This document shows, piece after piece, positions 1-51,600 of a stretch of DNA of 64,000 bases. The stretch is from Cavenderia fasciculata (Eukaryota; Evosea; Eumycetozoa; Acytosteliales; Cavenderiaceae). A program made the translations under genes and the position numbers. The stretch spans positions 310,001-374,000 of the forward strand of contig NW_004457642.1 in assembly GCF_000203815.1 (NCBI RefSeq), given 5' to 3'. Every line of letters begins with the position of its first letter. Position 1 is the first letter of the stretch. The notes beneath the pieces are model-generated. The model did not search any database, was not told the origin of the DNA, and saw nothing but the letters and a program-made list of their open reading frames with translations.

Positions 1-865
1 TACACCTATTATCGATCCCACCAAACCGACCACTTCATTTGACATTGATGGAATTGATTTCCAATTTGAAATTGTTGCAGTTCAAGAATTAGATATGGAT
101 GAAAACATCATCAAAGAGGTTCCAACTGATTTATGGATTTCAAACGTCACCATCAACACCACTCTCACTGTCGCCGACTATCAACTCAACATTACCAATC
201 GTACTATTATTGGCCCTCTTACCAATGTATTTGCAACCATTTCATTTTCTTCACAATCGCGAACCGTTCCATTTGGTCCCCAAACATTGTCGATTAAACC
301 AAGTGCGATAAAGGTGGCTGTCAATATTAGTCAATGGAGTTTCCAAGACAATCTATCCTACCTTCGTGTCGTTTTTAGAACCACTATCAATAATAACCAA
401 ACAGTAACACGTGATTGTAAAGAGATACCAATTGAATCTCTTTCTTTTGATGAGTATGGATCAACACTACAATACTTGCGAGTTGTTAAAGAAAATGTTC
501 AATTAAGTGGTAGATTTATCGATTATTCAATGTCTGATGGAAGACCAACCTATTCTCGTACTCAACTCATTTCACTGTTACCAAACAGTGACCAAACCAC
601 CTCAAATGCAACCATTGGTATCTTGCTTAGTCAATGTAAAGAATGTCTTCTTGATCCAGACTTTACACCTTTGCTCATCGACAAGGATTCCAACAATGGT
701 TGTGATAAATCAAACAATACTTGGCGTATCATCGTTGGTTGTGTAGTTGGTGGTATGGCTGCTATCGCAATTGCAACAGGTTCTATCATGTTGTATAAAA
801 GAAATCAAAGATTTAAAAAAGGAAACAAAACAATGCAAACTAAATTAAGTCAAGTCAATAAATAA
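1..865 (+). CDS. ComC-like surface protein, 3' end (last exon)
   Basis: This is the last coding exon of a ComC-like gene that begins upstream of the window. The frame is open from base 2 (T-P-I-I-D-P-T-K-P), and comparison with the other copies puts the exon start only a few bases before the window. It encodes the complete membrane-proximal domain (Pfam 'ComC supersandwich'). That domain carries the two-cysteine motif SQCKECLLDPDFTPLLIDK, shared by nearly all copies here. A hydrophobic helix follows (WRIIVGCVVGG onward), then a tail of about 25 mostly basic residues and a TAA stop. There are many N-x-S/T sites, as expected for an ectodomain. The protein is presumably plasma-membrane anchored with a short cytosolic tail. 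No break is seen in this part; the head cannot be judged. Confidence 0.85.
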   Translation, partial: TPIIDPTKPTTSFDIDGIDFQFEIVAVQELDMDENIIKEVPTDLWISNVTINTTLTVADYQLNITNRTIIGPLTNVFATISFSSQSRTVPFGPQTLSIKPSAIKVAVNISQWSFQDNLSYLRVVFRTTINNNQTVTRDCKEIPIESLSFDEYGSTLQYLRVVKENVQLSGRFIDYSMSDGRPTYSRTQLISLLPNSDQTTSNATIGILLSQCKECLLDPDFTPLLIDKDSNNGCDKSNNTWRIIVGCVVGGMAAIAIATGSIMLYKRNQRFKKGNKTMQTKLSQVNK

Positions 866-1206
866 TAAATAATAAATAAATTGTATTATTACCAGAACAA
901 TACTTTTCTAAATCGTCTAAAGATAGTAGTAAGGGAACCATTGGGATCTTAGTATAGATCTTACTGGGTACGAAAAAAACAAAAACAAGAAAACCCAGAG
1001 TGTCCACTACGCAAAAACTCGTTACCGTTTCAAACGAGCTCGGAAAATTATAGTGTTCAAGCTCGTAATATAAATCAGGGTTTGGACAATGATTGTGAGG
1101 TCATCTAGAGAGTTTTAGAATGACGTGCATGTTGTAGAACTTTTGAAGCATCACTATCATCATTTCTCATTTTTCCCAAAGAGATAACTGTTTACACATA
1201 TAAAAG
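866..1206. other. Intergenic, presumed promoter
   Basis: This lies between two + strand ComC-like genes. It contains a near-palindrome around 948-972 (ATCTTAGTATAGATC) and a slightly GC-richer patch at about 1000-1130. I see no ORF or RNA gene. The last ~60 bases before the next ATG are AT-rich leader. Confidence 0.4.
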
Positions 1207-4200
1207 ATGAATAATAAGATGCCGACAATTCATTTTACTTATTTAATAGTATTATTGTCAATATTATTTAGTTTTAATATTTTAGTAAATTCACAAATAC
1301 TTCCAACTGATCCCGATGAAGGTAAATAATTATATCTATTTTTTAAAAAATTAATGAACGGTTTTTGTGTTAAGAAAGAGCGGGAAAAAACGAATCGCGC
1401 AGTTAATCAAATCAGCCAGCACTATCATTATTCTTTTCAATTAAAGTTTAACACTAATATTTATCTCTCATTATATAAAACATCATATATTTATTTCATT
1501 TTTAAAAATGTTTTGTTACTATAGTAATATCTGTTCAATGGTTAATAGCACAATATCAATCTAAAATACCACCAACAAACTTTTGCAATGTTTCAATGCC
1601 AACCTATCAATACATTGTATGTTCAGAGGTTGATGGAGGGATGCACGTGACATCTATCAGTTTATCTATAGACTCTGGTCTCACAACTGGTGCATGGCCA
1701 GACCCAGAGTTGAAAAAGTTTACTCTACCCTATGTAACTATGTTTTCAGTATCCAACATTAGAGTTAAAAATGCTAGCTTGAATGTCTTGGACCTCATGG
1801 TTGACATGCCAAGATTAACAAAACTTTTGTATGTTTAAAAAATATAAATATAAATATAAATATTCTAATTAATATTATTATTTAGATTATTGAAAGATCC
1901 ACAAATTAGATATATTCCAGCAACATTGTCAGCTGGTCTTCCAGCTTTGGAACGTTTGGATTTACTTGAATTACCAGGTCTAACTAAAATCGAACATCCA
2001 TTCTTGTATGGCTCACCCAAACTTAATTTTATCACAATCTATGGTATTAGATATCTGATCGAGATGAGAGTCAATTCCTCTTGGTATCTCCCGTCACTTG
2101 AATATTTGCAGTTCACCGTAAACTTTACCGATCCTTCCCTCTTTGATTTGGTATTCACCGAACAATCCTTCCCAAAGATGACAAAGTTGGATCCAAAAAC
2201 CTATGCTGGCTCACCTCCTCCTGTAGATGGTTATTTGGATATTAAAATTGGTCTACCAAAGTTAATTGCAATGTAAATATAAATCAAAAAGATTAAAGAT
2301 AAAGATAGATCTATCTTTATTTAACCAATCTATTTTTTTAAACATTAGGTATCCAGCATCAGTTTTACCAACCAAAATACGTATAAACTTTATTCAATAT
2401 CCTTCATCTAATACATTTCAGTTGTAAGTAGAAATAGATAGTTGAAAATAGAATATATTTTAATCTCATATTAATTTTCTTTTTCTTTTTCTTTCTAGAA
2501 CATCATCTGGAAATATAGAATATTTACCATCGGGGTTAGATTTAATTAATTCAACCCTTCTCTCAACCTTTAATATGAGAAATGGCAATTTTTCAGAGTA
2601 TTTTCCAATAGTCAATCAGTATCCTCAACAATTGGGTTTCATATCGATAGAAAATTCATACTTGCCAACTGGTCTTCCAGCCATTCCACCTAATCCATCT
2701 ATGAAGACCGTCACCATTACTGACACTTTTATGCAAACTTTTCCATGGGATTCATTTGGTAATAGTACAACCACATTCCACATTACAAATACCAATCTCA
2801 CAGGTTCCATCCCATCCAGTTTTTGTAGTAATAAACTACCAAATCTAAAAAATATCTTTGGTGATCAATTACTTGTTCCTGGTATGTACAAACAAAAAAA
2901 AAAAATATTAAATAATAATAATAATAATATATATTATATAATATAGTTATAAATATTAATTAATTATTTATTTTTGTAGATTGTTTTTGGTGTTATGCAA
3001 ATGATACAACTATTTTTTCTACTACTCTTCCAACACCAACCACTATTGATTGTGGTATGTACATAATAATAGAGAGAATATTTAAAATATATATATTTTA
3101 ATATTAATCTTTTTATTTATTTATTTTTTTTATTTTTTTTTTAGGTATAACATTAGAATCAAATGATATTTATTTAATTAATGGAACTGGGTTTATAAGG
3201 GGTAAAAACATTGGGTGGGGTATTGAAAGTGCAGTGACACCAACTGGACAAAGATACTCACTTGGTGAAGCTCCATCTATTCCAAATCAAGAATTAAAAC
3301 TATTGATTTCACCTATCAAGTATAGTGTTAGAATTCCAATTACAATTGCTTTAAATGCTAAAACTTCATATGTAGTACCAATTACTATATTGGAGGTTGG
3401 AATTGCCATTGGTCCAGTGACAGTGACTCAGTTACCAACAGGTCTAGGATTAAAGATTCAATTCTATTCATTTAATCCATTTATCAATTCAGTGGTCATG
3501 GTTGATAATAATAGTACGTGTACGATCATGAGTAACTCGACTTATCAATTGTATTGTACCGTACCAGCAACTCTACCAGGTCCTCACAATCTATCGGTCA
3601 CAAATGAATATTATGGTAAATCGGTTGGGTTTGTGTACCAACAAACCTATCCATTGGTCAATTCATTCCACTATGATAGATCTGATTATAGAAATGTCAG
3701 TCTATATGGATTCTTTGGTGCCACTTTGGGTCAACCTCTAGTCTATCTAAATGAAACAACTTCTATTGGATGTACAGTAAAGGTGATCACCAAAAATTTC
3801 ATCAATTGTTATTTGGATGCTATGCCACCCGGTGGAATGGTATCCGTATCTGTCAATGTTGACATTTATTCATTTACAAGACACAATGCAATGTCTTTTA
3901 CTTATTCAAATCAAGGTAGTAGTAGTGATAGTGGTAGCGGTAGTGATGATTCAAAATTATCACCAAAAGATAAGTGTATGCAAGATACTCATAATTGTTA
4001 TGGTCATGGTCAATGCGATGAAAATGGACAATGTCAATGTGAACCAGATTATCTTCAAATTGATGATTGTAAAACAAAATGTAAAGTAGAAAAAAAAAAG
4101 AAAAAAAAACAATTAATATTAATATTTTTGTTTCTTTTAGATACAAATACAACACCAATAGTTGATCCAACAAAACCAACAACATCATTTGATATTGATG

Positions 4201-5033
4201 GAATTGATTTTGAATTTGAAATTGTTTCAATTCAAGAATTGGATGTGGATGATACTATTGTCAAGGAATTACCAACTGATTTGTGGCAATCAGTGATCAA
4301 TGAGACTGCCACTTTAACAACTGCCAACTATCTTCTCAATATTACCAATTCAACCGATCGTGAAATGAACCAAAACTTAGAGGTCAGAGCAACCATTTCA
4401 TTTTCATCGCAAGCCAGAACAGTCGCATTTGGACCTCAACAACTAGACATTAATCCAAATGCAATCAAGGTTGCTGTTAATATTAGTAATTGGGATTTCT
4501 ATTCCGTTCTAACCTATCTCCGAGTAGTATTCAAGACCAACATCCTTACCAATCAAACCTACACTTTTGATTGTCAACAATATCAAGTCGAACCACTTTC
4601 CTTTGACAAGTTTGGTTCCACTCTTCAATACCTAAGTGTTGTAAGGGATAATGTCGAGTTTAGAGGTCGATTCATTGATTACTCTTTGGCTGATGGTAGA
4701 CCAACCTATTCCAAAACACAATTATTATCACTTACCAAAAATACCGATTCCAACTCTACAACATCAACTGCAATGATTGGATTACTTCTTAGTCAATGTA
4801 AAGAATGTATTCTCGATCCAGACTTTACACCTTTACTCATTGACAAGGGTCAAGATGAATGTGGAAACTCAATCTCTGACAGTCACTGGAGGATTATCGT
4901 TGGTTGCGTCATAGGTGGTATTGCTGCAGTTGGCATTACAACTGGTTCCGTCATGTTAATTAAAAAGAATCGTAAATCTCAAATGTATGAAAACAAAATG
5001 AGACAAAAATTAGATTCTGTAAATCAAAAATAA
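1207..5033 (+). CDS. ComC-like surface protein (LRR, IPT/TIG-like, EGF, ComC domain, TM)
   Basis: Eight exons join in phase: 1207-1321, 1525-1828, 1886-2272, 2349-2423, 2499-2881, 2980-3054, 3145-4080 and 4141-5033, giving about 1055 residues. A signal peptide (MNNKMPTIHFTYLIVLLS...) is followed by a leucine-rich region of roughly 400 residues. Next comes a small 'DCFWCYAN' cysteine motif and beta-rich IPT/TIG-like sequence (YPLVNSFHYDRSDYRNVSLY). A Ser/Gly/Asp linker leads to an EGF-like module (CYGHGQCDENGQCQC), the ComC supersandwich domain, a TM helix (HWRIIVGCVIGG) and a Lys-rich tail. Intron 7 (4081-4140) is exactly 60 nt and free of stops, so its retention would keep the frame. No lesion found. 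It is presumably a type I cell-surface glycoprotein acting in cell contact; the ligand is unknown. Confidence 0.85.
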
Positions 5034-8502: not shown

Positions 8503-8999
8503 TTCTACAAATAAATTATGTGTAAAGTAAAGTAAAAAAGAGAAACTGAGAGAGATTTAATAATGTTAGAATACCTTCCTATCCTATCTTTTGATCATCA
8601 CCAAAGGAGTTCAAAAAAGATTGTTTTTTGCCCAACAACAACAATATTTTTTGATGAAAGGGATATCACCTATCAAATAGATTCAGCAACTTCACCCATT
8701 AACAATGATTGATTAAGATCTTCACATTCCTTATATAGTTATAATACACAAAATATAATTAAGAAAATTAAAAATAAAAGGGATGTAATAATGTTAGAAA
8801 CTCTTAATATCTTTTTGATTAAACATCTTTGTTCGTTTCTTCTACAACAACATTCATTGTTTTTGATCAAATCCAAAATAAGATTCATTTTTATTCTTTC
8901 TCAAAGGATGTCAAGGTCTTCTCGGACCTCTGAGGGTCTCGTTTTTGTGATCATTCAATCTCGACTGGTTGTTGAAATTTGATCAACACATACACAACA
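8503..8999. other. Divergent intergenic region
   Basis: This is shared upstream DNA between the - strand lectin-like gene and the + strand ComC-like locus. It holds two partly similar stretches (around 8575-8660 and 8830-8910) with TTTTGATCA motifs and TC-rich runs. I see no convincing coding or RNA gene. Confidence 0.4.
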
Positions 9000-11900
9000 A
9001 TGTATATTTCTAGATCTCTACTTATTAATATATTTTTTTTTGTATTTGTATTTGTTACTCATATAGATCATTTGAATTTTGTTAATGCTCAATCAACACT
9101 ACCAGCTGACGAAGGTATGTAGCTACAAAATACCAAATGTTGAGACATCATTTGTTGACTTGATCTTAACTCTTTCTATTGCAATATACAGTTCAGTCAA
9201 TAGTTTTTCTTATTAGACAATTTGGAAGTATACTACCACAGACCCAACTAGGATTTTGCAATAATTTAACAGATACGAACCAAGTGGTTAAATGTGGTGT
9301 TGTCAGTAGCGAGTATCATGTTTTAGAAGTGTATGTTTTGTAAAAAATATATATAAATTATCAATATCAACCAATATAAATTGATGTTATATATTATTCT
9401 TTTTTTTTTTCAAACTAAATAATAGCAAATTACAACTTGGTTTTAAATATGCGGGTATACCAGACAGCACATTGGAGAAACTTAGTCTACCATGGTGTAA
9501 ATCTTTTCAACTATCAGCATCCCAACAAGAGAACAAATCAATTAATATCCTCGATTATCTTGTTGATCTACCTAAACTTGAAGATTTGAGGTATGTACAT
9601 CCAATAATAATCACGTCCAAACTGGGAGGATCGAGAGTAAGGAGAGAATGAGATGGTAGCTGAAATCTCTGTCTTTGGTCCAACAATCGTATTATTATTA
9701 TTAGTACTAAATATTTTTTAAAAGGGTACAACAAATTCAAGTTCCAGTTAGTCTTCCAAGTTCGATGAATTTACCTAGTTTAAAGGTTTTGATGGTTCAC
9801 AATCTTTTCAATTTTACAACACTACCTAGTTGGTTCTTTTCCAATAGCACCGGTTTAGAGACCCTCTTTTTAACAATGGGAGATATTAGGCAAGAAGATT
9901 TATCAGGTTGGAGATTCTCCAACTTGACCACACTTCGAATGACATTTGGCTGCCAGTCACCGACCACATTGCCAATCGATTTGCTTGATATTTCATTTCC
10001 AAAATTAAATGTGCTCCAAATTACAATTTTAAATGGATCTTGTTTTATAGATATTCGTTCAAATATTACCAAGCTTGGTTCATTGTATGTTTTGACAATC
10101 AATCAATAGATTGTTTTTTAACCGAAAATACTTTTTTTTTTTAGAGATCTATTTACACAAATAGGCGAATCGATTGATCAATCTTTGAAAGTTACTTTTG
10201 TCAAGATTCCTTCTTTGTTATTGATAAATATTTATGGTCCCTCAATCACATTTGAGCCAACTGATTTAGGAGTTTTAAAAAATCTTGATTACCTGTATGT
10301 TGTTTTTAAATCCATAACAAAAAAATTAAATTAGAAATTTCTAACCATTTTAATCTCCAGGACTATTCAATATGCCAACTTATCATCATATTATCCATTC
10401 AAAACATATCCGTCAACCTTGAAAATATTGTATGTATAAAATAATAATATAAAAAAAAAGGCTACAAAAATCTAATTTCTTTTTTCTATAGAAATATCTA
10501 CTATTCAATTTGAAACCTTACCAAATATCCCATTTCCACCTTCACTAGGTTATATAGGCCTCAGAAATAATCCCTTTTTGGTTAGCATTCCGTGGAGTAT
10601 TTTTGGAAACAATTCAGTGACTGCAACCATCGCCAATAATACTGCTCTTGTTGGTCAAGTCCCAGAGTCATTTTGTATATCAAAATTTAGTCTTTTAAAT
10701 GTATCCAGTGGTGCCATGACTCTACCAGGTTTGTTAAATTTACATAGTTATAATTGTAAATAGTAGTTTATAAAATACTAATTTACTAAAAAATATCCTT
10801 TAGATTGTTTTTGGTGTTATAGTGGTGATTCAACTATTTTAACCACCTCTTTGACTATGCCCTCTGGATTTGTTTGTGGTAAGATAGATGAAACTAAAGA
10901 TATAGTACAAATCTCTTAAAAAAAAGTAGTTAATATTAATTTAATAATTTAAATTCTTTTTTCTTTTTAAAGATTTATCAAATTCTCAAAGTGTAGATTT
11001 GATTAATGGAACTGGTATATTGAGTTCGAAAAATATTGGATGGGGTAACAAAAATACAACAAGGTATAATTTAATTGCCACCAAACCAAATATACCAAAC
11101 CAAGTACTCACATTGAAATTGGATACATTGTTGATTGGGCCAAGACAACCTGTTTCCATTCAATTCAATTCCAAAATGCCAGAGCTGACAAGACAAGTAC
11201 AAGTACAAGAGTTTGGTATCTTTTTTGACACTCTGTCAAAACCATTGGCCGTACAAACTGCAAATTGATTGTTTGTCAATATTTCATTCACTTTGTTTAA
11301 TCCTTTTGTCATCCATACTGTTATGATTGATGACACTATACCATGTATTATAACGTCAAATTCGAGTTCATATATAGTTTGTCAATCCCTATTCATCGGT
11401 GGTAGTATTCATAAAGTCAGTGTCATTAATTCACAAAATAGTATTGATTTATCATTTACTATGATGTATCCACTCGTGACTGCATTTGACTATGATAGAA
11501 ATGATACTAGAAACATTATATTGTATGGAGAGTTTGGAAGCAATGGACAAACCAATCCAGCGGTCTATCTAAATGAAACAGTGTATTGTCAAGTAACCTA
11601 TGCATCCCAATCATTACTGAATTGTAAATTGGCTAATCCACCATCATTTGGTAATGCTTCGGTTTCTGTCATTATTGATTCATTTATATTTAATCGTACA
11701 AATGCCCTCAACTTTGTTAATAATAATAATAACAACAACACTAGTGGTGGTAGTAGTAGTAATATTTCACCAATCGAACAATGTGAACAATCTACTTTTA
11801 AATGTTATGGTCATGGTGAATGTGACTCTTTTGGTAATTGTCAATGTTATCCAAATTATGATCAATTAGATAATTGTAAAAATATGTGTATGTATAAAAA

Positions 11901-12885
11901 AAAAAAAAAAAAAAAAATTAATAATTAATAATTAAATTTTTTTTTTCTTTCCATTTACTATTTAGATACAAATACAACACCAATTATTGATCCAAAAAAA
12001 CCAACAACATCATTTAATATTGATGGTATAGAATTTGATTTTGAAATTATTTCAATTCAAGAATTGGATTTGGAAGAGAATATTGTAAAAGAATTGTTGG
12101 CCGATAATTGGAACTCTAACATTACAATAACTCCATCTATTACTATCGCCAATTACCAATTAAATATTACCAACAACAACGATACTACTACTACTACTAC
12201 TACTAATATGATGAGTCATTACGGAAACACATCAGTCTCGGCAACCATTTCATTTTCATCGCAAGCGAGAACAGTCACCTTTGGAAGTCAACAACTAGAC
12301 ATTAATCCAAATGCAATTAAATTGGCTGTCAATATTAGTGGTTGGCATTTTGATACTAATCTTTCCTACCTCCGAGTAGTATTCCAAACGTCATCGATCA
12401 ATAATACACAATCATATACCTATGATTGTAACGACTACCGTCTAGACCCTCTATCATTTGATGAGTATGGGACAACACTGCAATACTTGCGTGTTGTAAA
12501 GGACAACGTCCAATTTAATGGTAGATTCATCGATTATTCAGTGGCTGATGGTAGACCAACGTATTCGCGAACCAAACTCATCTCGCTTACACCAAATACC
12601 AAGGCTGCACTTGACAACACGTCATCGGCATTGATCGGAGTGTACCTTAGTCAGTGTCAAGAGTGTTTGCTCGACCCCGACTTTACACCTTTGCTCATTG
12701 ACAAGGGTGACACTCGTTGTGGCAGCGACCAATCAAACAACACTTGGCGTATCATTGTCGGTGCTGTAGTTGGTGGTATTGGTATGGTTGCCGTTGCTAT
12801 TGGTTCTGCTCTTCTAATACAAAAGAAAAAAATCTACAATCGAAATATAAAAGCATTACAAGCTAAAATGAAAGCATTTGAATGA
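9000..12885 (+). pseudogene. ComC-like gene with two coding lesions
   Basis: The architecture is a ComC gene: signal-peptide exon of 115 nt (9000-9114), LRR exons 9192-9330, 9426-9590, 9725-10084, 10145-10294, 10361-10429 and ~10492-10730, then DCFWCYSG, IPT/TIG-like and EGF parts. The final exon (11966-12885) has the ComC domain, TM and tail. Two defects are visible. The exon starting at 10492 is entered one base out of phase; one surplus A in the AAA at the acceptor would explain it. An in-frame TGA at 11266-11268 interrupts the conserved T-A-N-x-L-F-V-N motif. The rest is well preserved, so this is either a young pseudogene or, for the first lesion, possibly an assembly error. Intron 9591-9724 carries an inverted fragment of a ComC domain (see findings). 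Confidence 0.75.
9604..9700 (-). repeat. Inverted fragment of a ComC-domain exon inside an intron
   Basis: Read on the - strand, this intronic stretch matches the start of the ComC domain as found at about 14,540-14,620. It encodes T-I-V-G-P-K-T-E-I-S-A-T-I-S-F-S-P in a continuous frame, flanked by an AAT run as in the source exon. It keeps a six-base segment (GAGATT) seen at 16,637 but missing from 14,565, so the source was a relative of those copies rather than the 14.5-kb copy itself. It looks like an inverted micro-duplication within the array. Confidence 0.75.
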
Positions 12886-13345: not shown

Positions 13346-14484
13346 ATGTATAATTAATACCTTCAATTATAACATTGATCGCATTCTTTTTAGGAATCAA
13401 TTATGATCAATCAATTGTTTATTCACAATGTATGTTGTTGTTGTTGTTGATGTTATATCAATTTAGTATTATACTAACCATTTATTTATTTTCTTTATTC
13501 TAGTACTATTATTTTCAATAGTACACAATCATCACCTGTACAACTAGCATTCAAAGTTGGATTTAATTTAACATTTACTGAATTTAATCCTACTATTCAA
13601 CATAATTACTGTTGCTGAAATAGGTAGTAGTAGCAGTAATAGTAGTAGTATTGTACCACGTATCATTATATCAAATTCGACAGATTGGTTGTATTGTGAA
13701 ACGACGGTTGCTATTCAATCAGGTGATTATAATGTTACAGTTGTGAATGATAATAATTATAGTCAATCTACAATGATTACATTTATTCAAACCTATCCAC
13801 TAGCCATTTCATTTGAACATGATATTTGGCATAGAATATACGGTTATTTCGGTCCAAATGCAAATGACAAACTCAACGTGTCGGTGATTGTTAACCAAGA
13901 CGAAATATGTTTTCCAAGCAACGGGTCGGTCTGTCCTAATTTAATCCGGTGTCACATGATTTCAATACCCGTGGATCGTTATCGGTTTCCATTTCAATAG
14001 ACTCTTACAACTATACTAGATTGACTGCTATTTTATATCCCTCCAGCGTCCCCTCCTCCATTACCAGAACCATTTTGCACCATGACACACAACTGTTACG
14101 GAAATGGAGATTGTTATGAACAAGATAAAAAATGTTAATGTAACAGTGATTATAATCAATTAGATAATTGTCTCACTAAATGTATGTAAATGTTAAATAA
14201 CGGTGAATGTCTAGAATATTAATATTAAATGGTTATTTATTATTTATGATAGATTTAAAAAATACTTTAAATACAACTATTATTAATCCAGGTAAACCAG
14301 TTGCATCATTTGTGGTGTTGATGGATCAGATGGAGCTGATTTTAAATTTGAAATAATGTCTATTCAAGAATTGGATTGGGATGAATCGATCATCAAGGAA
14401 TTACCAACTGATCAATGGCAATCAACTGTCAATGAAACTTTAGATGGTAAACAAGTGACAACTGTAGACTATAAGCTCACCACC

Positions 14485-14543
<59 letters not shown>

Positions 14544-15037
14544 GATTGTTGGACCAAAGACAGCTACCATCTCATTCTCTCCCAACTCTCGATCCTCCCA
14601 GTTTGGACGTGACTCTGTTTACCTTGGACCAAATGCCATCAAGATGTCTGTTAATGTCACTGGTTGGGAATTCAAGTCGACTGAATCCTATCTACGGGTT
14701 GTATTCCAAACAGACCAACAATCAATCATTCAAGCATGAATGTGATGATTACAATACCGATACATTCACGTATGACTATACAAATGCAACTTTGCAGTAT
14801 ATGAGAGTAATCAAAGGTAAAGTCCAATTCAATGGTCGATTCATTGACTATTCACTCGCTAATCGTCAGTACACGTATTCGAGAACACAAGTCCTATCAA
14901 TTACACCAAATAGTGATAACATCATCTCTTTTGCAACTATCGGTGTGACACTTGGTCATTGTGACCAATGTATACTCGATCCAGACTTTACACCATTACA
15001 AATCAGTAGCGGAGGTACTTGTAAAACAGTCAATTGA
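13346..15037 (+). pseudogene. Short ComC-like pseudogene lacking the LRR region
   Basis: A head exon (MYN... at 13346) closely matches the heads at 15443 and 51600 but reads a stop at codon 4 after a one-base loss. The next exon starts directly in the IPT/TIG-like part (QLAFKVGFN-type sequence at ~13540), so the whole leucine-rich region is absent. Relative to the copy at 15443 there are further frame breaks (about 13,605, 14,000 and 14,725). A stop lies in the EGF module near 14,137, and a TGA at 15035 removes the TM segment where the relative has Trp. An (AAT)n run of 57 bases lies in the ComC domain. It is a decayed gene. Confidence 0.85.
14485..14541 (+). repeat. (AAT)n microsatellite in coding sequence
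   Basis: Nineteen AAT units encode a poly-Asn tract inside the ComC domain of the pseudogene. Such tracts are typical of dictyostelid genes. Confidence 0.95.
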
Positions 15038-15442: not shown

Positions 15443-17256
15443 ATGTATAAATTAATATCAATTATAACATTGATAGTATTCTGTTTATTAGGGTCTAGCA
15501 ATTGTGATCAATCAATTGTCTTTAATTCTCAATGTAAGTTGTAATATACACAACTGATTTAAAAGATTCTTTATTAATTTATAATTTAATTATTATTACA
15601 AAACATACAAAAGCAATCAACAATAATTCTTCTAGTACTATTATTTTCAATAGTACACAATCACCTCCCGTACAACTAGCATTCAAAGTTGGATTTAATT
15701 TAACGTTTATTGAATTTAATCCTACTATTCAACATAATGTTACTGTTGCTGCAACCGAAACAAATCAAATAAGCATCGTACCATGTATCATTATATCAAA
15801 CTCGACAGATTGGTTGTATTGTGAAACTACCTATGCCATCGCAACAGGTGACTATAATGTTACAGTAGAGAATGATTTCAATAGTCAATCTACTATCATT
15901 ACATTTAATCAAACCTATCCACTAGGAACTGCATTTTCGTATGTTGATGTGGACCAGGCCAGTCTGTCTATCAATGGTTATTTTGGTGAAAACGGACTGC
16001 ACAATGTATCAGTGTATCTCAACCAAACCAGTTGCAATCATTTTTTAATTATCTATTCTACTTCTATCATGTGTTGGTTGGATACACCCCCCACCCGTGG
16101 ATTGGCATCGGTTACCATTTCAATAGACTCTTACAACTATACTAGATTGAATGCTATTTTCGTTCCTCCCCCTGCTCCTTATACATACAACATTACCAAC
16201 ACAACAAGTCCCTTTTGTACCAACGTCGCAAAAAATTGTTATGGAAACGGAGAATGCTCTGAAAAGTTTCAAGTCTGTTGGTGCAACAGTGATAGTTATA
16301 ATCCAATAGATTATTGTCTCACTAAATTTAAGTATAAATCTAGATTAACAATCAAACAAATTTAAACTTATAAATATTAATTTCTATTTATTATTTATTT
16401 AGTTAAAGAAACAACAGCAATTATCAATGAAACCAAACCAGTTGCATCGTTTGATATTGATGGAGCTGAATTTAAATTTGAAATAATGTCAATTCAAGAA
16501 TTGGATTGGGATGAATCGATCATCAAGGAGCTACCAACTGATCAATGGCAATCAACTGTCAATGAGACATTGCACCATTTGACAACAGTAGATTATATAT
16601 TCGATACTTTTAATAACACAGTCGTTGGTCCAAAGACAGAGATTTCAGCCACCATCTCATTCGCACCATACTTTAGATCAATTGCTGTCGGAAACAAATT
16701 TCCTATGGATGTAGACATTAATCAATATGCCGTTAAAATGTCAGTCAATGTTAGTGGTTGGGAATTCAAGTCGACTGAAACCTATCTACGAGTGGTCTTC
16801 CAAACAGAGATTAACAACAATCAATCATTCTCTTATGACTGCAAGGAAAATACCTATGTCGATACATTCTCTTTTGACTCTATGAATACAACGCTGCAGT
16901 ATATGAGAGTAATCAAAGGTGGTATCCAATTCGAGGGTTCATTTATTGATACATCACTCGCTGATGACCAATTTACTTATTCAAGAACATAAGTACTATC
17001 GATTACACCAAATAGTGATACAACCTCTATTGCAACCATCGGTATCGTAATTGGTCATTGTGACCAATGTGTACTCGATCCAGACTTTACACCATTACAA
17101 ATCACCTATGATTGTAAAACTGTCAATTGGAGATTGATTGTAGGTCTAGTAGTTGGAGGTGTTGCTGCTATTGCCATCATCACATTATCTATCATTCTCA
17201 TCAAAAGACATAAAAATCGTCAAGATCCAGAAAGACAACCATTAAATATCAATTAA
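15443..17256 (+). pseudogene. Short ComC-like gene lacking the LRR region, damaged
   Basis: The head exon 15443-15533 (MYKLISIITLIVFCLLG) joins in phase to an exon from 15614, which starts S-I-N-N-N-S-S-S-T and runs into the IPT/TIG-like part. The leucine-rich part is missing by design of this sub-lineage. An EGF-like module (CYGNGECSEKFQVCWC) follows. The ComC domain, TM (NWRLIVGLVVGGVAA) and tail end at 17256. Two defects are seen. The donor after the EGF module reads AAATTTAAG where other copies have AAATGTATG. An in-frame TAA stands near 16,990 where the relatives have CAA. Both are substitutions, so real decay is likelier than sequencing error. If translated to the stop it would be a secreted fragment. 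Confidence 0.8.
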
Positions 17257-25426: not shown

Positions 25427-25427
<1 letters not shown>

Positions 25428-25490: not shown

Positions 25491-25495
<5 letters not shown>

Positions 25496-28400: not shown

Positions 28401-29213
28401 TCAAAAGAATAGTCATACAATAGTGTATTCTTTATGGAAATACTACTCAATCTGGAACCAGCAAAGAATGACCCTTGAATGACTGTTACCGGGCAATTGT
28501 CTATTCCAAATACCATTGCTTTTGTATTGGCTGTAAATACCTCTGGTATTTCTGTAATCGATGGATCATTGTGTATTCTAAATAAATTATTGTTTTAGAA
28601 ATAAGTTTGACTAGGTACCTAGGTATCTTATGTGATTTATAATAACATACCTTATTGATCTATACACAGACATATATGCCATTCTTGTCAATATATTGAT
28701 ACTTGGATCAGCAACCCTTCCAGCAGCACTAACAAACAAGGAATCTATTCTGTAAAATCCCAATGTCTCTATACTAGCATTTGGCATACCCATATTTACA
28801 AATACATCAACTGTAATGTTACTAATTAAATTACATATGAGAGAGAGAGAGAGAGAGAGAGAGTGATTAGTAATAGATATAATATAATAAACAGTTCTGA
28901 ATACATACATTCTTGCAATAAAAGTAAATGAGCCTGCTGATTGAGAACACCCAATATACTCTGTGAAATTACACAAAGATGTTAAATCAATATTTAATCC
29001 AGAGAACCCATATTGTTTGATAATAAATTGAGCTGCTTCAACTATGAAATGGTAAGTAGATTAATTAATATCTATATATTTGATTAATTACATACTATCA
29101 GATGCAAGTAGAGGAAATTGGGGTTGTGCACTACTACATGATCCAAATATAACAAAAACAAAGATTAAGCAATAATAATAATAATGACAGAGATACTCTT
29201 TGTTGACAGCCAT
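25491..29213 (-). CDS. ComC-like surface protein, tandem copy A
   Basis: Ten exons join in phase: 29213-29096, 29041-28909, 28821-28651, 28577-28275, 28197-28060, 27986-27792, 27724-27344, 27274-26922, 26838-26452 and 26380-25491. The product is about 1022 residues. The parts in order are a signal peptide (YYYCLIFVFVIFGSC), about 430 residues of leucine-rich sequence, DCFWCHMNG, an IPT/TIG-like region, an EGF-like module (CFNRGKCANGICIC), the ComC domain (PQCRSCLLDPDFTPLIIDK), a TM helix (WRIIVGSVVGGIALVALAVG) and a Lys-rich tail. No lesion found. One donor (28274) reads GTATTT, weaker than the others. Its last exon is almost identical to those of copies B and C. Confidence 0.85.
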
Positions 29214-32600: not shown

Positions 32601-33468
32601 GTAGGATCGAGTTGGAGAAAATCCAATTGAGACTTTTTAATGTAAATAGTCGATAATCTAGACTGATTAAAGAATGTACCTTGAATCAATGTAATGGGAC
32701 ACCCACTCAATCCAAAAACGGATGCACGAGTACTAGTAGTAAATATTAACGGTATTACATCCACAGATGGATCATTATGTATTCTACAAATAAATAATAT
32801 AAAAAGAAAGATTAATACAAATAAATACATAGTCACTGTCAGGGCAGGCAAGACACATACCTAATCGATCTAGGGTTAAATGTTTTAGCAAGTTTAGTCA
32901 AGATGTTGATAGATGGATCAGCGACTTGACCAGCACCAATAATAAACAGATAATCGATTCTATAGAATTCCAATGTCTCTAAACTAGCATTTGGCATACC
33001 AATATTCTCAAATGCATCAACTGTCAAGTTACTATATAGTATATTACATAAAAGAAAGAAGATATATGCTGATTAGTTTACAATTAATTATCAGATAATA
33101 ATCAATCAACATGTTGGTACATACAATCTTGCAATATAGGAATACTCGCCTGCTGAAGTACACCCAATCATAGAAGTGTAATTACATAACCATTGTATTT
33201 GTATACCAGCCACACCATATTGTTGTAATATAAATTGAGCTGCTTCAACTATATATATAGATTGAGTCATTGAATAAATGAGTTGTTAGACAAAGTCTAG
33301 CTTTGAGAGTGTACTCTAAACTATACTATACTACATACCATCTTGAGCAATAAGAGGAGGAAACACAGTGGGTAGAGCAGCATCTACAACAGTGTAGTAA
33401 CCACTAGACAGTAACAGCAGCAGCAGAAAAGCAAGAATACTACAGATACTTGTATTATTTATGTTCAT
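29657..33468 (-). CDS. ComC-like surface protein, tandem copy B
   Basis: The ATG is at 33468 (MNINNTSICSILAFLLLLLL, a signal peptide). The layout matches copy A exon by exon. The main exons run 33253-33124 (VEAAQFILQQYG), ~33,033-32,873, ~32,784-32,490, 32,390-32,270, 32,165-31,970, 31,903-31,530, 31,429-31,074, ~30,998-30,615 and the last exon 30550-29657. I followed every junction and the phases agree with no stop. It carries leucine-rich sequence, DCFWCYING, IPT/TIG-like sequence (SFTYPRSLLGPPYTLNVSF), an EGF-like module, the ComC domain, a TM helix and a tail. The ectodomain differs clearly from copy A while the last exon is nearly identical. Confidence 0.82.
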
Positions 33469-36715: not shown

Positions 36716-36783
36716 AGATAGAAATCTATTAGTTTGTTGTAGTGTAGTTGTACGTACAAGGTTAAATAAGGTAAAGGTATGAA

Positions 36784-37124
36784 TAATCATCATCGTCATC
36801 GGAATTACTTTGTTGCAACGATAATACTGATATTTGGTAGCTTGTGCTTTGTTGCAACTGCCGTCCCAATATCACCATTTCCTCCTCTCATCGATTCTGA
36901 TGGTATGTATCTATATCTCTAATAGAGAGTTCTCTATCTATCTATCATTAGATCACACATACCAAATATTCATATTAATATTATTACCTTCTGTCCTATT
37001 CTAATATAGTTCAATCGATTAGAGGAGTCAAAATAGAGGGATTGAGTGGTAGGGAGGCACCCAGCATCTTGTATTATGTTTGTAAAATAAGATATCGCCC
37101 AACAACAACAAGATATTGTTGCTG
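36784..37124 (+). pseudogene. Orphan ComC-like head exon (signal peptide) and exon 2 remnant
   Basis: An ATG at about 36,781-36,784 opens a signal-peptide exon (NNHHRHRNYFVATIILIFG, then LCFVATAVPISPFPPLIDSDG) ending at a GTATGT donor near 36,902. It is typical of ComC heads in this array, including the P-x-L-I-D-S-D-G ending. A good acceptor at ~37,008 leads to V-Q-S-I-R-G-V, like exon 2 of other copies. After about 35 codons the frame stops and no LRR, EGF or ComC exon follows on this strand. It lies back to back with the headless copy C. Confidence 0.7.
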
Positions 37125-38609: not shown

Positions 38610-41600
38610 ATGATACTTCTCATCTTTCTTTTTGTTCTATTATTTTTAAGCTCGTCTATCCAGGGAGCTTTCCTCCCTCTTGACCCCATTGAACGTAAGT
38701 TAAGCTAGATATTCGCCCCCCCCTCTTTTTTTTTTTTTTGATGATCTTATCTCTTTTCGACATGGTTAAATATCCTTCTTACTTACTTGTTTAATCTGAT
38801 ATTGTAGTCAATGCAATTCAATTTATAGCAAAGCAATATGGTATAGATGGTATTGATTTCACGGGTGCAAATATTTGTAGTTCACCATCATTTACTTGTT
38901 TGCCTGTCGGTCAAGCATCACGTATACAACATATGTATGTATTGTTATATGATTAATAGTAGGATATATTAATAATAATCAATCTCTTAGAAATTTAGAT
39001 GTAACAACATTTAAACCATTGGGTCAACCCGATGTCATATCGGAATTCCCATTTGCAATGTTAAAGACCTTTAGATTGAAAGCTGCTAATCAAGTAGCCA
39101 ACCCATCAATCAATATATTAAATCTAATAGTTCAATTGGATTATCTTGTTGATTTATCGTATGCATCAATCATTCGAGTAACGATAGATAGATAGATAGA
39201 TAGATAGATACTAACTCTTCTTCTTCTTCTTCTTCTTTATTTTTTTTTATTTTCTATAGAATTATAAATGATCCATCAATAACTTCAATACCAATTATAT
39301 TCCCAAATGAAATGTTAAGACTTGAAACAATCATTTTTGACAATTGTACAAATCTTACTCATATCGATCCATTCTTTGATAGTTTAACCGACATTTTGAG
39401 TCTATCCATCAAAAGATGTCCGATTAATCGAATTGTCATCAACGAGACCACCTCTTTACCATTTCTAACCACATTGGATTTAGATCTAGTTGATAGCACC
39501 TCTGACTCTAACCCCAGCGGTCCTACTGCGAGTGACATGTTAAAACTATCTTTTGGTTTATCTTCATTCCCCAAATTATCACTATTGGTATTATCAATGA
39601 CTGGTAATGGTAATCCTCAAGTTATTCTCAAATCTGATCTATTACTTTTATCTCAAGTGTATGAATCAATTCAACATATTTTCAATCACAACTTTTGTAC
39701 TTTATATTAATATCTTTCTTCTTTTCTATTTTAGTAATTTAATAACAACAGGAACTGGAACTGGTGGATTTAAACTTGTCCCACAAAACCCATCAATCAT
39801 TAAAAATATGTATGTAGTTCGTTTTACTTTTAATTGATTTATTGATTTTAATTATATTTCTTTTAGAGCAATCATAGGAAATTCATATATAGAGGCGTTT
39901 ACGGCAAGTTCGTATACTAGTTTGTTATCATTAAATTATTTATCAACTCAATTGATATCTTATCCATGGACTAGTGGGTCGTTTACTACCCTAAAACAAC
40001 TTGGTTTCAAAGATTCACAATTCTCTACTATCCCATCAACACCAATCATTCCATCAATGCTTAATTATTTGTAAGTTTATATAAATCAAAGGATAGATAT
40101 ACATTTATTTATATTTATTTACTTATTTATTCTTTTAATTTTAGGAATTTTAAAAATAATGTTTTAACAACTATTGAATGGCAAGCATTCCAAGGTATAT
40201 TTGGAGATTCAACGAGTTTGTTTAATTTAGGATTGGATTTATCAGATAATAGTAATCTTGTTACTACAATTCCCAATAGCATGTGTAATAATATTGGGTT
40301 GTTGGATATTCGTAATACTAGTATCACCGAGTTACCATCATGTCTAATCTGCTATTTACAAGATACTGATCATATTCAAACCGATATTATTATGCCTCCA
40401 AACTACTCTTGTGACATTACAATCGTTTCAACACTACTAGTACTTGATAATAGGGTCGGTATCATTCAAGGTAGTTTATTGGGATTTGGTATTATTAGTG
40501 AATCATATAAAACTCTCCCTATAGTTCCCCAAACTAAATTAAAGTATGTACATACACACACACACACACATACACATAATATAATATAATATATCTATGA
40601 CAAGTTGTATTGATTTTCTTTTTTTTCTTATTTAGGATAATTTGGAATAATTATTTATATACTGAAAAGACCAATTATCAAATATCATTTAGTCAATATT
40701 ATCCAGAGTATACTAAAACACTCGATGTGATAGAGGCTGGTATAAGTGTAAACAACTATACCATCTCCAAGACAGCTGGTGGTGTTGTGCTGTTTAACTT
40801 TTCAATCACCATCAATGACCATCTCAACCACACAGTCACACTCAACAACAACAATGGCAGCATCAACTGTATTCTCGTTAATATAGACAGAAATAATATG
40901 GTGTGTCAAACAAATGTCGCCCTACCATCATCATTGAAATTTAATATTTCAAATCAATACCTTTCTCTTGTGTATGAAATTTCATACAATTCTAGTATGT
41001 ACAAATTAAAATATTAATTTAAATATAAATATACTAACTAATCTATTTTTATTTTTAGCATGTCCATATTTAACATCAGCTCAATACGATCATGATAATC
41101 ATTCAATTATATCATTGTTTGGCAATTTTGGGTCATCATTATCACACGTTTCAGTACAATTAAACAATTCTATTCCATGTAAATTAGAATCTGTCACTTC
41201 GAAGCTAATTGTTTGTTTACTTTTAGAGCGACCCAATCTTGGGTTGACAGATGTAAAGATTCAGGTAAACAATATAGATTACCTCGCCGTAGCAGCCCTC
41301 TGCTTTAAAAACCATACCCATCGAACTGAACAACAATGCTTGGTCAACAATTGTTATCAAAGAGGTCACTGTGAGCCAAATGGTCGTTGTATTTGTGATG
41401 ATCTATCTTATAATCCTGATGATGATTGTTTAACTAAATGTATGTAAATCAAAATTAATATTAAATATTATTATTTTTTTATTAACTTTAATTTATTTAG
41501 ATGCAAATATAACATTTAATCCAAATACAACAGCACCAACAACATCATTTGATATTGATGGAGTTGGATTTCAATTTGAAATGGTTGCCATTCAAGAATT

Positions 41601-42450
41601 GGATATTGACGAGTCGGTCATCAACGAATTATTTACAAACAGTGGTGATTGGGAATCAACTATTACAACCAATACTATTAATAATGATACTGATACATTG
41701 GTAGTATATAAACATAATGCTTCTTCTTCTTCTTCATCATCTTTAACATCTCATAGACGAGGTCATCGTCAAATACATAATAATAATAATATTAACATTA
41801 CAGCAACACTTTCATATTCGACAAGAGAACGTCAAGTTGAATTTGCATCACATACACTTCACCTTCACCCCAACACTGTCAAGATGACGGTCTATATTGA
41901 AAATTGGACCTACGTTTCATCAGTCAGTACACTGAGGGCTGTTTTTAGAACAAGATTAAATAGTCAGAGTCAATTGATTGACATTGGATGTGACCAACCA
42001 ATGGAAATCACACCACTCCAATTTGGAAGTCTATCGTCATCACTGCAATATCTTCGTGTCGTCAAAGACTCTGTACAGTTTAATAGTAGATTTGTAGACT
42101 ATGTAGTATCTGATGGCAAAACAACATTCTCCAAAACAATTATCATCAATCAAACTACTGTCGAGGGTAGCCCGGACCAACTATCGACACTCATCGGTAT
42201 TAATCTACCTCAATGTGCATCATGTGTGATCGATCCCGATTTCACTCCACTGACTATCGACAATCATGCCATCTCTTGTGGTCGTAATTCTCAAGTACCC
42301 GATACATGGAAGATTGTAGTAGGATGTGTAGTTGGTGGTGTAGCAGCCGTTGCTGCTGCCATTGGAGGTATCTTTTTATGGAAAACTAAAAAACAACAAA
42401 AGAATACAATTGATAGTGGAAATATGAAATTAAAAGAATTACAATATTAA
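38610..42450 (+). CDS. ComC-like surface protein
   Basis: The head exon 38610-38694 (MILLIFLFVLLFLSSSIQG) and exon 2 (38808-38934) are followed by LRR exons from ~38,997, ~39,261, ~39,735, ~39,868 and ~40,146. The IPT/TIG-like exons start at ~40,637 and ~41,061, and the last exon starts at ~41,502. All junctions checked are in phase with no stop. The EGF-like module reads CYQRGHCEPNGRCICDD. The ComC domain has a Ser run and an inserted basic stretch (SHRRGHRQIH) and keeps the CASCVIDPDFTPLTID motif. TM (WKIVVGCVVGGVAAVAAAIG) and a Lys-rich tail follow. It is more diverged from copies A-C than these are from each other. It is probably a functional surface glycoprotein. Confidence 0.85.
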
Positions 42451-47796: not shown

Positions 47797-50700
47797 TTAT
47801 TGTTTGTTCATATTGGCCAATTTAGATTTCATTTTAGCATTGAATCTTCTTTCAATTCTTTTACGTCGAATTTGAAGGCCTGTTGCTGTGGCAAGAGCAA
47901 TGGCGGCAGTACCTCCAACCACGACACCGACAATCAATCTCCAATTGACCTTTTTGTCACAACTTTTACTCTCGTCCTTGTTGATGAGCAATGGTGTAAA
48001 GTCTGGATCGAGTAAACACTCTTGGCATTGACTCAAGAGAACACCAATAGTTGCCACCGAGGTGTCGTCATCGTTGCTGCTCGGTGTCAATGATATGAGT
48101 TGGACTCTAGAATAGGTGGGTCGGCCATTGGCGAGTGAGTAATCAATGAATCGACCATTGAATTGGGCGTCACCCTTAATCACTCGAAGGTATTGTAATG
48201 ATGTATTGAGAGAGTCAAACGATAACGAATCGACATTGTAATCTTCACAGTCATAAGCAAATGATTGGTCGTTATTTATCTCTGTTCTAAATACCACTCT
48301 GAGATAGGATAGATTCGATTCGAAATCCCAACCACTAATATTGACTGCCAATTTAATGGCATTTGGATCAATGACAATCTGTCGTAATCCAAAATCAACG
48401 GTTCTAGAAAGAGACGAGAATGATATGGTGGCAGTAACCTCAGTCTCTGGACCTACAATCGTACTATTGGTTGTATTTAGTTTGTATTGTGCTACTGTCA
48501 ATTCTAAAGTCGAGTTGATAGTAGATTGCCAAATATCAGATGGTAATTCTTTAACAATTGATTCATCCAAATCTAATTCCTGTACTGAAACTATTTCAAA
48601 TTTAAAATCAACTCCATCAATATCAAATGATGTTGTAGGTTTGGTTGGATCAATAATTGGGGTAGAATTTTTAACTATAAAATTAAATAACAAAGATTAT
48701 TAATAAATAATTAAATATTTTTTAATGATATATATTTGATTACATACATTCAGTTAAACAATTATCTAATGGATTGAAACCAGTATCACATTGACATACT
48801 CCATTTTCATCACATTGACCATGACCAAAACAATTTGATGTATTAACGATACAGTCTTTTAATGGATTTGATTCTTCTGATCCTTGACTATCACTACTAT
48901 TGATTCCGCCGCCACCACCAGAGGTAAATAGGATAGCATTCAATCGAGTAAAGTTGTAAGAGTCTATTGAAATATGAACGGATGCTAATCCTTTGGGAGG
49001 CAATACATCCAATTTGCAAATAATCGATGTTTGATTGATCGAGGTAATATTACAGTTGGTTTGGTTGAGTTGAACCGATGCATTTTGTTGTCCGTTTGCT
49101 CCAAAATCACCATAGATATAGATGGTCTGAGGATCAGATGAATCATACGAAAATGCAGTTCCAAGTGGATAGGTTTCGGTAAATGTCATCATAGTCGATT
49201 GACTATTATAAACATTTTGTACTGAAATGTTGTAAACACCCGTTTGAATAGGACGAGTAGTTTCACAATACAACCAATTGGTTGAATTTGATTTAATGGT
49301 ACATGAAATATTACTGCTACTGCTTAGTTGATCTACGACTGTGACAATGTGTTGAACAAATGGATTAAACAGTGTAAATGTCACATTAAATCCAGCCTTG
49401 AACGATAGTTGGATTGGTGGTAGTGGTTGAACATTCTTGTTGATAATAATTCCAACTTCAATCACATTAAATGGATATGAATATTGTGGTGTATTACCAT
49501 TCAACTGAAGGGTATATGGTTTTTTTGGACCAACCAACAAATTTTTAATGTTTACACTTAAAATTTGATTAGGGATGATAGGTGTAAGAGCGTAAGATCC
49601 GGTCAATGTATAACCCCAACCAACATTAGTGCCTAAAATATAAAATTGATTAGTAATCAATTAATGTTTCAAGTGTATAACAGAAAACTGTAACAACTTA
49701 CCTTTTATAATACCAAAACCATTAATCAAAGGTAAATCCATTGATGCAAATTGAATATTACATGTAAATCCAGGTGGTACTGTTAAATTTGTTGAAATAA
49801 TACTAACATCTGCATAATAACAGTAAAAACAATCTTTAAATGAAAAATAATTAATAATTATAAAATAAATAATTCATTAATAATAACATTATTATTATTA
49901 TAACATACCAGGGATACTAGAAATTAAGGTGTTTCTAATCATTAATTTGCCTGTACAAAAGGAATCTGGAACCGAACCAGTCAAGGCTGTATTGTTAAAG
50001 AGTTCAATGGAAAAAGTTCGATTGGCAAATTTATCCCAATCGATAGTTGTTATTTGGTTGCTCGCTAACTGAAGACGGGACAAGGTGTTTGGAAAAGAAA
50101 CAGAGGATGGAATGCTTGTTATATTGGAACCAGAGATAAAAAAGGTTGTCACATTTGGAGGGATAATCCATGGATTGGCACGATCACCATAATTAATTTT
50201 TAAAAAAAAAAAAAAAAAAAAAAAAGATTAATAAAAATTTTAATTAAAAGAGAGAGAGAGAGACATACAATGCTGTAAGGTTGGGGAAATGGCTTACATC
50301 TGGGTTATACACATTGTTTCCATAATTTGTCCTATATGAATAAATTAATACTACTAGTTAATAATTTTAAACCCCAGATATATTTTTAATATAAGATATG
50401 ATATGATAACACTTACAATAATTTGCCGCTATATGGAGTTTGGAAATTAACATAAAATGAGGTACCAGTTATACGACTAGATATTGACCTGATGAAAATA
50501 ACAAATTATTATTATTAGTATCTTAAAGTTTTACATTTCGCTATTAATTAATTAATTAATTGATTCATACATTTGGCCAAGAGTTGGAACATTTATATTC
50601 ACATTGACGACTCCACAAGCACCAACAAATGGGCTAGTAGAGAAATCAAACAACTTTGGGAATGATTTACTTTGTAAATCCATTTTTATCAAATTGGGAT

Positions 50701-51600
50701 TGGTACAATTGAAGGAGAGTTGCATATATAGAAGGGCTGGCATAGACCAAGTATCATCAACTACTAATTCATTGAAGCTTCCAGATAAAATAATGTGGGA
50801 CAACAGAGGATGATTTCCAAACACTGGTTGTGTTATCGACTTTAGTTTGGGTAATGATAATAGTTCTAATCTTACAAGCGAAGGTCGACCACCGTTGGAC
50901 ATACTTTGAGGAATATTTGTAATTGATGCATCCGATGTAATTCTTTAAAAAGGAAAAAGATAAATAAAAACTATTAATAATTAATCAGATCTCTACTACT
51001 ACTACTACTTACATAACAAGTCCTAGTTTAGGAAGATCAACCATCATATCAAGAACATTTTTTGAGGGATCCTTGACAAACAATGCCCCGTCAGTACTAA
51101 CCAATGTTAATTGGGGGAAATAGAATTGCGTGATGCTTGGAAGAGTACCTGGTTGAGGTGATGGAGCTGTAGGTCTCCCAAGTCTGTTTAAACACAAAAG
51201 ATATAAAGGTAAAAGAGAGGATGAGTGAGTGAGTTGATCCTTCGTTATAAACTACTAGTAGAGTTTTCTTTTCTTTCTTACATTTCTGATACATGAACAC
51301 CATCTGAAAGGGAAACACATTTAATGTACAAAGAATTTGTTCCATATGTTGCATTATTACAGAATCCTTGTTGAGTTTGGGAGTGGCCACCCATACTGTA
51401 TGATCAACCAACGAACAGACTCCACTGTATAATGTCAAACAAACTATGATTAACACCAAACTGAAGATAATTATCATTATTAAAACAAACTAACACCTAC
51501 CTTCTTGAGTTGGCATCACTCCTTGTGAATAAACATTTTGATCACAATTAAATCCTAAAAAGAATACAATCAATGTTATAATTGATATTAATTTATACAT
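47797..51600 (-). CDS. ComC-like surface protein with one apparent frame break
   Basis: The head exon at 51600 (MYKLISIITLIVFFLGF) ends at a GTAGGT donor near 51,502. Exon 2 starts V-E-S-V-R-W-L-I-I-Q-Y-G, then the conserved continuation (TQQGFCNNATYGTNSLYI) appears one frame off. One surplus G in GGGTGG at ~51,390 would explain it. Later exons are intact: LRR exons ~51,183-51,016, 50,943-50,575, ... 50,152-49,911, ~49,840-49,805, IPT/TIG-like and EGF (CFGHGQCDENGVCQC) to 48,748, and the last exon ~48,676-47,797. That exon carries the ComC domain (SQCQECLLDPDFTPLLINK), TM (NWRLIVGVVVGGTAAIALA) and tail. Since the only defect sits in a base run, a sequencing error is as likely as a real mutation. 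Its head is the closest match to the two short pseudogene heads at 13.3 and 15.4 kb. Confidence 0.75.

What the first reader, a model, noticed from the sequence alone, without database searches (positions are those of the whole stretch)
1..51600. A ten-locus ComC-like surface-gene array with whole, decaying and split copies
Seen: ten loci share head exon, LRR exons, CFWC motif, IPT/TIG-like part, EGF module, ComC domain and TM/tail, or recognisable remains of these. They lie in both orientations over 51 kb, with few other genes between. Known: ComC and the IPT/TIG Tgr proteins are surface proteins of dictyostelids, and Tgr proteins act in kin recognition. Inference: this could be a birth-and-death array supplying varied cell-contact receptors, comparable in genetic style to other allorecognition loci.
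Basis: partly seen in the sequence, partly recalled or inferred. Interest (0 to 1): 0.8.

Follow-up and report, generated by a model that had tools for sequence, protein, structure and literature searches.

The report
Amoeba receptors: shared stalks, varied heads
A social amoeba carries a very large family of cell-surface proteins whose outer, probably recognising parts differ strongly from copy to copy while the part next to the membrane is repeatedly copied between neighbouring genes, a pattern also known from some animal recognition receptors.

Summary
The ten loci are real. The window lies on a 941,765-base contig of a 31-Mb genome that matches Cavenderia fasciculata. Four of four final exons scanned exceed the Pfam cut-off for ComC_SSD. 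Five loci show no lesion (1, 2, 6, 7, 9), two are full length with two lesions each (3, 10), two are headless copies (4, 5), one is 5'-broken with an inverted head exon beside it (8). They are a slice of a family of at least 172 places, 49 on this contig. Beyond birth and death, in three arrays the membrane-proximal SSD exon stays alike at synonymous sites while LRR heads are near saturation; in the largest array head and SSD trees reject each other, which means segmental gene conversion. Window loci 1, 2, 3 and 10 do not show it. Dictyostelium proteins show a like mosaic: head lineages cross species, SSDs cluster largely by genome. Predicted folds: extracellular LRR solenoid and a GLMP-like supersandwich. 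Recognition of kin or microbes is inferred, not shown. Genetically it resembles clustered protocadherins and TLR1/TLR6. Verdict: new variant of a known kind.

The parts
1..865 (+). Locus 1: last exon (ComC_SSD, TM, tail); its other exons lie upstream of the window in L039; no lesion found
1207..5033 (+). Locus 2: intact, 8 exons, 1055 aa
   Evidence: manual splice; Pfam
9000..12885 (+). Locus 3: full length, one frameshift near 10.5 kb (by eye; the aligner charged two) and one stop at 11266
13346..15037 (+). Locus 4: headless decayed copy, exon 1 joined to TIG-EGF-SSD exons, several frameshifts and a stop
15444..17223 (+). Locus 5: headless copy of the same kind, one frameshift and one stop charged by the aligner
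25491..29213 (-). Locus 6: intact once the start exon is read by eye
29657..33468 (-). Locus 7: intact, 10 exons, 1021 aa; part of DFA_09593
33801..36725 (-). Locus 8: 5'-truncated, later LRR exons to tail remain
36779..36902 (+). Signal-peptide head exon of the same type as those of loci 6 and 7, in inverted orientation next to locus 8
   Evidence: read by eye
38610..42450 (+). Locus 9: no lesion found
47797..51600 (-). Locus 10: full length, one frameshift near 51368 and, by eye, no AG acceptor near 50.2 kb
29660..30547 (-). ComC_SSD exon of locus 7 (GLMP-like supersandwich, TM, tail), the homogenised module

Best explanation
The loci are tandem genes for type I surface receptors of the ComC family: signal peptide, LRR solenoid head, CFWC cap, beta-sandwich/TIG domains, an EGF-like knot, a GLMP-like supersandwich (SSD), one transmembrane helix and a basic tail of about 20 residues. 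SHOWN by sequence: arrays grow and decay, and ectopic recombination (gene conversion) between neighbours keeps the SSD, and less strongly the TIG-EGF exon, alike within some arrays, while LRR heads, and in the two larger arrays the tails, go their own way. INFERRED: the SSD docks to a shared partner or makes a common oligomer and so is kept compatible, and the LRR head carries a variable recognition specificity at cell contacts (cell-cell or cell-microbe).
Against: C14: SSD does not reject the head pairs (p 0.36, 0.19, 0.20). GC3 is lower in SSD than in heads (0.231 v 0.288), so there is no GC-biased-conversion sign. Loci 6-8: TM/tail is only a little above SSD (0.161 v 0.119). Window subfamily A (loci 1, 2, 3, 10) shows no homogenisation: SSD pS 0.657; in the close pair locus 0/locus 1 the SSD (0.227) is not below LRR exons 4-5 (0.132). 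The intron before the SSD is only 69-75% alike in the median pair. TIG-EGF distance still follows head distance (r 0.62, p 0.0002). In C. fasciculata heads also group by array, except m384. Array head models come from my own aligner without RNA data. No expression, binding or isolate DNA data.
Confidence: 0.68

Rival explanations
1. Kin or self recognition: the varied LRR heads are tags and receptors by which aggregating amoebae sort cells, in parallel with TgrB1/TgrC1.
For: Dictyostelid surface family; comC mutant listed with aberrant aggregation (passage) and comC among developmentally essential genes (passage); head lineages cross species and two D. discoideum proteins differ in the head but not the SSD.
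Against: No isolate, mixing or expression data for these genes; ComC itself is one gene and its role need not hold for the arrays; allele or paralogue unsettled.
Confidence: 0.4
2. Microbe or prey recognition: LRR heads bind bacteria or their products, as TLR-like receptors do, and diversify in an arms race.
For: LRR fold nearest to receptor ectodomains including TLRs; amoebae eat bacteria; TLR1/TLR6 show a like conversion pattern (abstract).
Against: Short basic tail without a signalling domain; no ligand data.
Confidence: 0.3
3. Neutral birth-and-death only: tandem copies recombine where they are most alike, without selection on heads.
For: 5 of 10 window loci are broken; whole-head pN stays below pS in the medians; conversion needs no selection.
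Against: Five loci stay open over 8-10 exons; in Dictyostelium the same head lineages persist across species.
Confidence: 0.2
4. No conversion: strong purifying selection holds the SSD and heads simply evolve faster.
For: SSD pN is low everywhere (0.03-0.06 within arrays); GC3 gives no conversion sign; C14 trees do not conflict.
Against: Synonymous and four-fold sites are alike within but not between arrays; head and SSD trees conflict in the C17 array.
Confidence: 0.05

Closest known systems
ComC family (Pfam LRR_ComC, Beta-sand_ComC_1st/2nd, ComC_SSD; D. discoideum ComC)
   Same: ComC_SSD over cut-off, TIG, LRR fold of a full-length relative, signal peptide, TM, short tail
   Different: PF24141 not reported at E 0.01 for the window exons scanned or for C. 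fasciculata P0004, P0008, P0013; at least 172 places in one genome; segmental homogenisation. PMC4931340 lists comC as found only in group 4 (passage), whereas the SSD family is in this genome too
Clustered protocadherins of fishes (PMC1852091, passages)
   Same: Tandem surface genes; membrane-proximal ectodomain homogenised by regional conversion, distal ectodomain diverse; homogenised parts differ between subclusters
   Different: LRR/SSD domains; whole separate genes; GC3 is raised there but not here
Mammalian TLR1/TLR6 (PMC2077338, abstract)
   Same: Tandem LRR receptors; C-terminal part kept alike by conversion while N-terminal parts diverge
   Different: Two genes with a TIR tail; here large arrays with short basic tails
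TgrB1/TgrC1 locus of Dictyostelium (PMC12324515, passages)
   Same: Dictyostelid TIG-bearing transmembrane proteins, partial copies, recombining locus
   Different: Sequence relation not tested; the words ComC and EGF do not occur in the held text of that preprint
GLMP luminal domain (PDB 6nyq, 8r8q)
   Different: 9% identity; no functional link shown

Membership tests
ComC family | ComC_SSD domain over the Pfam cut-off | tested here: met
   4 of 4 exons scanned, 56.6-73.7 bits, cut-off 24; loci 1, 6, 7, 8, 9
ComC family | LRR head | tested here: met
ComC family | IPT/TIG domain | tested here: met
   Loci 2 and 10 over the cut-off; other loci's TIG exons not scanned one by one
ComC family | EGF-like domain over the Pfam cut-off | tested here: inconclusive
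   19.4 bits v 22.1 in locus 10; no window place among 81 listed; cysteine-rich knot aligned in all nine loci that keep it
ComC family | Signal peptide and TM near the C-terminus | tested here: met
   Hydropathy of loci 2, 6, 7, 9; locus 2 has one further segment at 523-541
Tgr family (TgrB1/TgrC1) | Sequence relation to Tgr proteins | not tested
   No Tgr sequence was fetched
Allorecognition system | Head polymorphism among isolates of one species | tested here: inconclusive
   Two D. discoideum proteins: SSD 98%, N-terminal part 46%; allele or paralogue unknown; no C. fasciculata isolate held
Allorecognition system | Unlike genotypes sort out or are excluded | not testable with these tools
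   Needs mixing experiments
GLMP-type supersandwich | Fold of the domain | tested here: met

The most novel reading that the evidence does not exclude
Dictyostelids hold, beside Tgr, a second and larger LRR-based contact-recognition system: ComC-family receptors whose heads are old, diverse lineages kept across species, while conversion keeps a GLMP-like docking module interchangeable for one shared partner, an invention parallel to clustered protocadherins.
Probability: 0.3. Interest if true: 0.86.

Novelty: new variant of a known kind. Interest (0 to 1): 0.65.

Why it matters
It suggests that the constant-stalk, variable-head way of evolving surface receptors, known from clustered protocadherins and TLR1/TLR6, also arose in social amoebae, in a family other than the much studied Tgr genes. 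D. discoideum laboratory strains and published wild-isolate genomes make the recognition hypothesis directly testable. Public gene models that fuse neighbours (DFA_09593, and probably DFA_09592) hide part of the array.

Tried and rejected
Purifying selection alone: contradicted by synonymous and four-fold sites and by tree conflict in the C17 array. cDNA-mediated conversion, considered because the intron before the SSD is only 69-75% alike in the median pair: the m389/m404 tract is alike across that intron, so DNA-level exchange is preferred; not excluded elsewhere. Diversifying selection on whole heads: median pN stays below pS; high divergence in LRR exon 5 was not used because the alignment there is unsafe. 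A sequence search of the PDB with the SSD profile gave one chance-level match (E 0.42). The DdCAD-1 domain has 5 places in the genome, 2 on C17, no array link. The AU groups were picked after seeing the trees and itself, so the p-values are not fully independent.

Print: ten paper searches ran; one search found no paper naming DDB_G0277431; among titles and abstract beginnings listed I saw none reporting this pattern in ComC genes. Most subscription papers are not held, and a look-up of DOI 10.1101/gr.121137.111 (recalled as a dictyostelid genome paper) found it is not held. Fold libraries: families not listed are not excluded.

Own errors met on the way: an earlier count said about 60 matches on C17; the count is 40. 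Notebook entry 3 speaks of between-isolate polymorphism; that is not settled.
Full report
WHAT THE WINDOW IS. The window is G000:C17:310001-374000 of a genome of 30,995,898 bases in 21 contigs. The spliced protein of locus 7 matches DFA_09593 at 100% identity over 96% of the query. The species is therefore inferred with high confidence.

THE OBSERVATION. I wrote a spliced aligner (GT-AG introns; stops and frameshifts charged) and applied it to each locus with two manually spliced genes as queries. Locus 7 (29657-33468, minus) is a clean ten-exon gene of 1021 residues. Locus 2 (1207-5033, plus) is a clean eight-exon gene of 1055 residues. Locus 1 with its upstream DNA, locus 9, and locus 6 once its start exon is read by eye, show no lesion. 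Locus 3 has a stop and, by eye, one frameshift (the aligner charged two); locus 10 has one frameshift and, by eye, a missing acceptor where the aligner charged two further frameshifts. Loci 4 and 5 keep exon 1 and then jump to TIG-EGF-SSD: the same loss of the head in two neighbours, with later lesions. Tally: 5 of 10 without lesion, 2 of 10 full length but broken, 2 of 10 headless, 1 of 10 truncated.

FAMILY SIZE. A six-frame search with PF22933 scored 150 of 282 candidates; all 150 matched, and none of 14 control genomes did. Forty lie on C17 where 4.6 are expected by length; 92 of 150 sit in 26 clusters with gaps of at most 15 kb. That list lacks loci 2, 3, 4, 5 and 10 of this very window. 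A protein search with the locus 8 SSD (150 of its 151 matches listed) adds 22 places, so the union is 172 places, 49 on C17. Both searches were capped, so this is a lower bound; some places are fragments.

THE MOSAIC. Synonymous differences (pS, Nei-Gojobori) were counted by domain on codon alignments anchored to locus 7. Medians for LRR exons 4-6, exon 8, SSD and TM/tail are 0.53, 0.45, 0.12, 0.16 in loci 6-8; 0.72, 0.76, 0.24, 0.61 in eleven genes of C17:384-448k; 0.68, 0.69, 0.11, 0.55 in six genes of C14:2.09-2.11M (pairs lacking half of a domain were dropped there: 10 of 15 kept for LRR and tail). Between the first two arrays SSD stands at 0.565 and LRR at 0.71. SSD is below LRR exons 4-7 in 3 of 3, 55 of 55 and 15 of 15 pairs. 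Four-fold sites agree: 0.071 v 0.396, 0.153 v 0.570 and 0.174 v 0.505 within arrays, 0.436 v 0.615 between arrays. In the C17 array pS falls at the exon 8/9 border, is lowest near the start of the SSD and rises again at the TM helix. Protein constraint does not act on synonymous sites, and the distance between arrays shows that these sites are free to change.

RECOMBINATION TESTS. In the C17 array heads support m429+m434, m408+m413+m418 and m389+m404; the SSD DNA rejects these (p 4.0e-6, 2.5e-6, 0.018). The SSD pairs m389 with m443 (88/98), which heads reject (p 1.8e-9). SSD distance follows neither head distance (Mantel r 0.25, p 0.11; without m384 r -0.02) nor gene order (r 0.07), but TIG-EGF distance does follow head distance (r 0.62, p 0.0002), so the free module is mainly the SSD. 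In pair m389/m404 the 150-base windows from about 2.5 to 3.9 kb of the gene run 99, 99, 98, 91, 99, 100, 99, 100, 94%, across the intron before the SSD, while the tail has pS 0.64.

RESULTS THAT DO NOT FIT NEATLY. In the C14 array the SSD tree does not reject the head pairs (p 0.36, 0.19) nor a third grouping (0.20). GC3 is lower in the SSD (0.231) than in heads (0.288), unlike the fish protocadherins. The intron before the SSD is only 69% (loci 6-8) or 75% (C17 array) alike in the median pair, with shuffled controls at 53% and 61%. Loci 1, 2, 3 and 10 of the window show no homogenisation (SSD pS 0.657), and in the close pair locus 0/locus 1 the SSD (0.227) is not below LRR exons 4-5 (0.132). 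In protein trees the SSDs of the C17, C14 and subfamily A groups are each one clade (100% of bootstrap trees) and loci 6-8 in 68%; heads also group by array except for m384, so exchange stays within arrays.

ANOTHER LINEAGE. A search with the SSD part of a D. dimigraforme protein found 166 proteins, 120 listed. I compared 20 of the DDB_G0277431 type, plus seven of two further types in pairwise form. Among six D. dimigraforme proteins with close tags, SSDs are 82-93% identical in 15 of 15 pairs and N-terminal parts 36-56% in the 14 pairs with enough residues; tails are 32-51% in 14 of 15 pairs and 90% in one. In trees, the six SSDs are one clade (95/86; all 200 bootstrap trees), while their heads need five changes and the five full-length heads are rejected as a clade (p 7e-13); the SSDs of D. 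cf. discoideum ACTFIZ also group (85/89), but D. discoideum and ACTFIY SSDs need two changes each. Heads group across species: AX4 DDB_G0277431 with a D. cf. discoideum, a D. citrinum and a D. dimigraforme protein. AX4 and ACTFIR_005913 share 98% of SSD and tail but 46% of the N-terminal part; their heads are rejected as a pair (p 6e-52), while the SSD rejects neither this pair (p 0.29) nor two cross-species head pairs (p 0.245, 0.066). The collection is clustered at 90% identity, so copy numbers per strain cannot be read from it; only proteins were compared, so constraint cannot be separated from conversion there.

MECHANISM. Shown: hydropathy fits signal peptide, one C-terminal TM and a short basic tail in loci 2, 6, 7 and 9; duplication, decay and segmental exchange. 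Inferred: tandem homology drives ectopic conversion; selection keeps the SSD compatible with a common partner, much as the TLR1/TLR6 authors propose for that pair (abstract); heads carry specificity. In fish protocadherins the membrane-proximal ectodomain is homogenised and the distal one diverse (passages). Kin recognition would fit the aberrant aggregation listed for the comC mutant (passage) and its place among developmentally essential genes (passage); microbe recognition fits the LRR heads about as well.

LIMITS. Array heads were modelled by homology without RNA evidence. Family counts are lower bounds. No isolate DNA, expression or binding data could be reached.

Noticed in passing
window 43087-43659 (+): Homologue of calcium-dependent cell adhesion molecule-1 (PDB 1yhp, E 3.8e-26; PF14564 134.4 bits) inside the array; 5 such places in the genome, 2 on C17.
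   Followed up: partly
window 17784-20012: Tc5/pogo-type DNA transposon with 54-nt, 89% complementary terminal repeats; transposase matches lie in two separate open frames.
   Followed up: partly
window 44318-45844 and 46430-47731 (+): Two neighbouring, visibly similar ORFs without a Pfam match: a further tandem duplicate inside the array.
   Followed up: no
window 5091-6812 and 7177-8556 (-): Two long ORFs between loci 2 and 3; no Pfam match over a cut-off (the second has PapG_N at 21.2 bits, cut-off 25).
   Followed up: no
window 23131-36725: Public model DFA_09593 joins locus 8 to locus 7 (sequence seen); DFA_09592 probably joins locus 6 to the ankyrin gene (from its Pfam list only). Database counts of the family are unsafe.
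   Followed up: partly
L039 and window 1-865 (locus 0 and locus 1): Close pair whose LRR exon 3 holds a block at 64-77% DNA identity between stretches at 93-98%: a possible hypervariable patch.
   Followed up: partly
intron before the SSD exon, loci 6-8 and C17:384-448k genes: This intron is less alike than synonymous sites on both sides in the median pair, but nearly identical in m389/m404; not explained.
   Followed up: partly
C17:196-243k: A further run of ten ComC_SSD places, all on the minus strand, not fetched or analysed.
   Followed up: no
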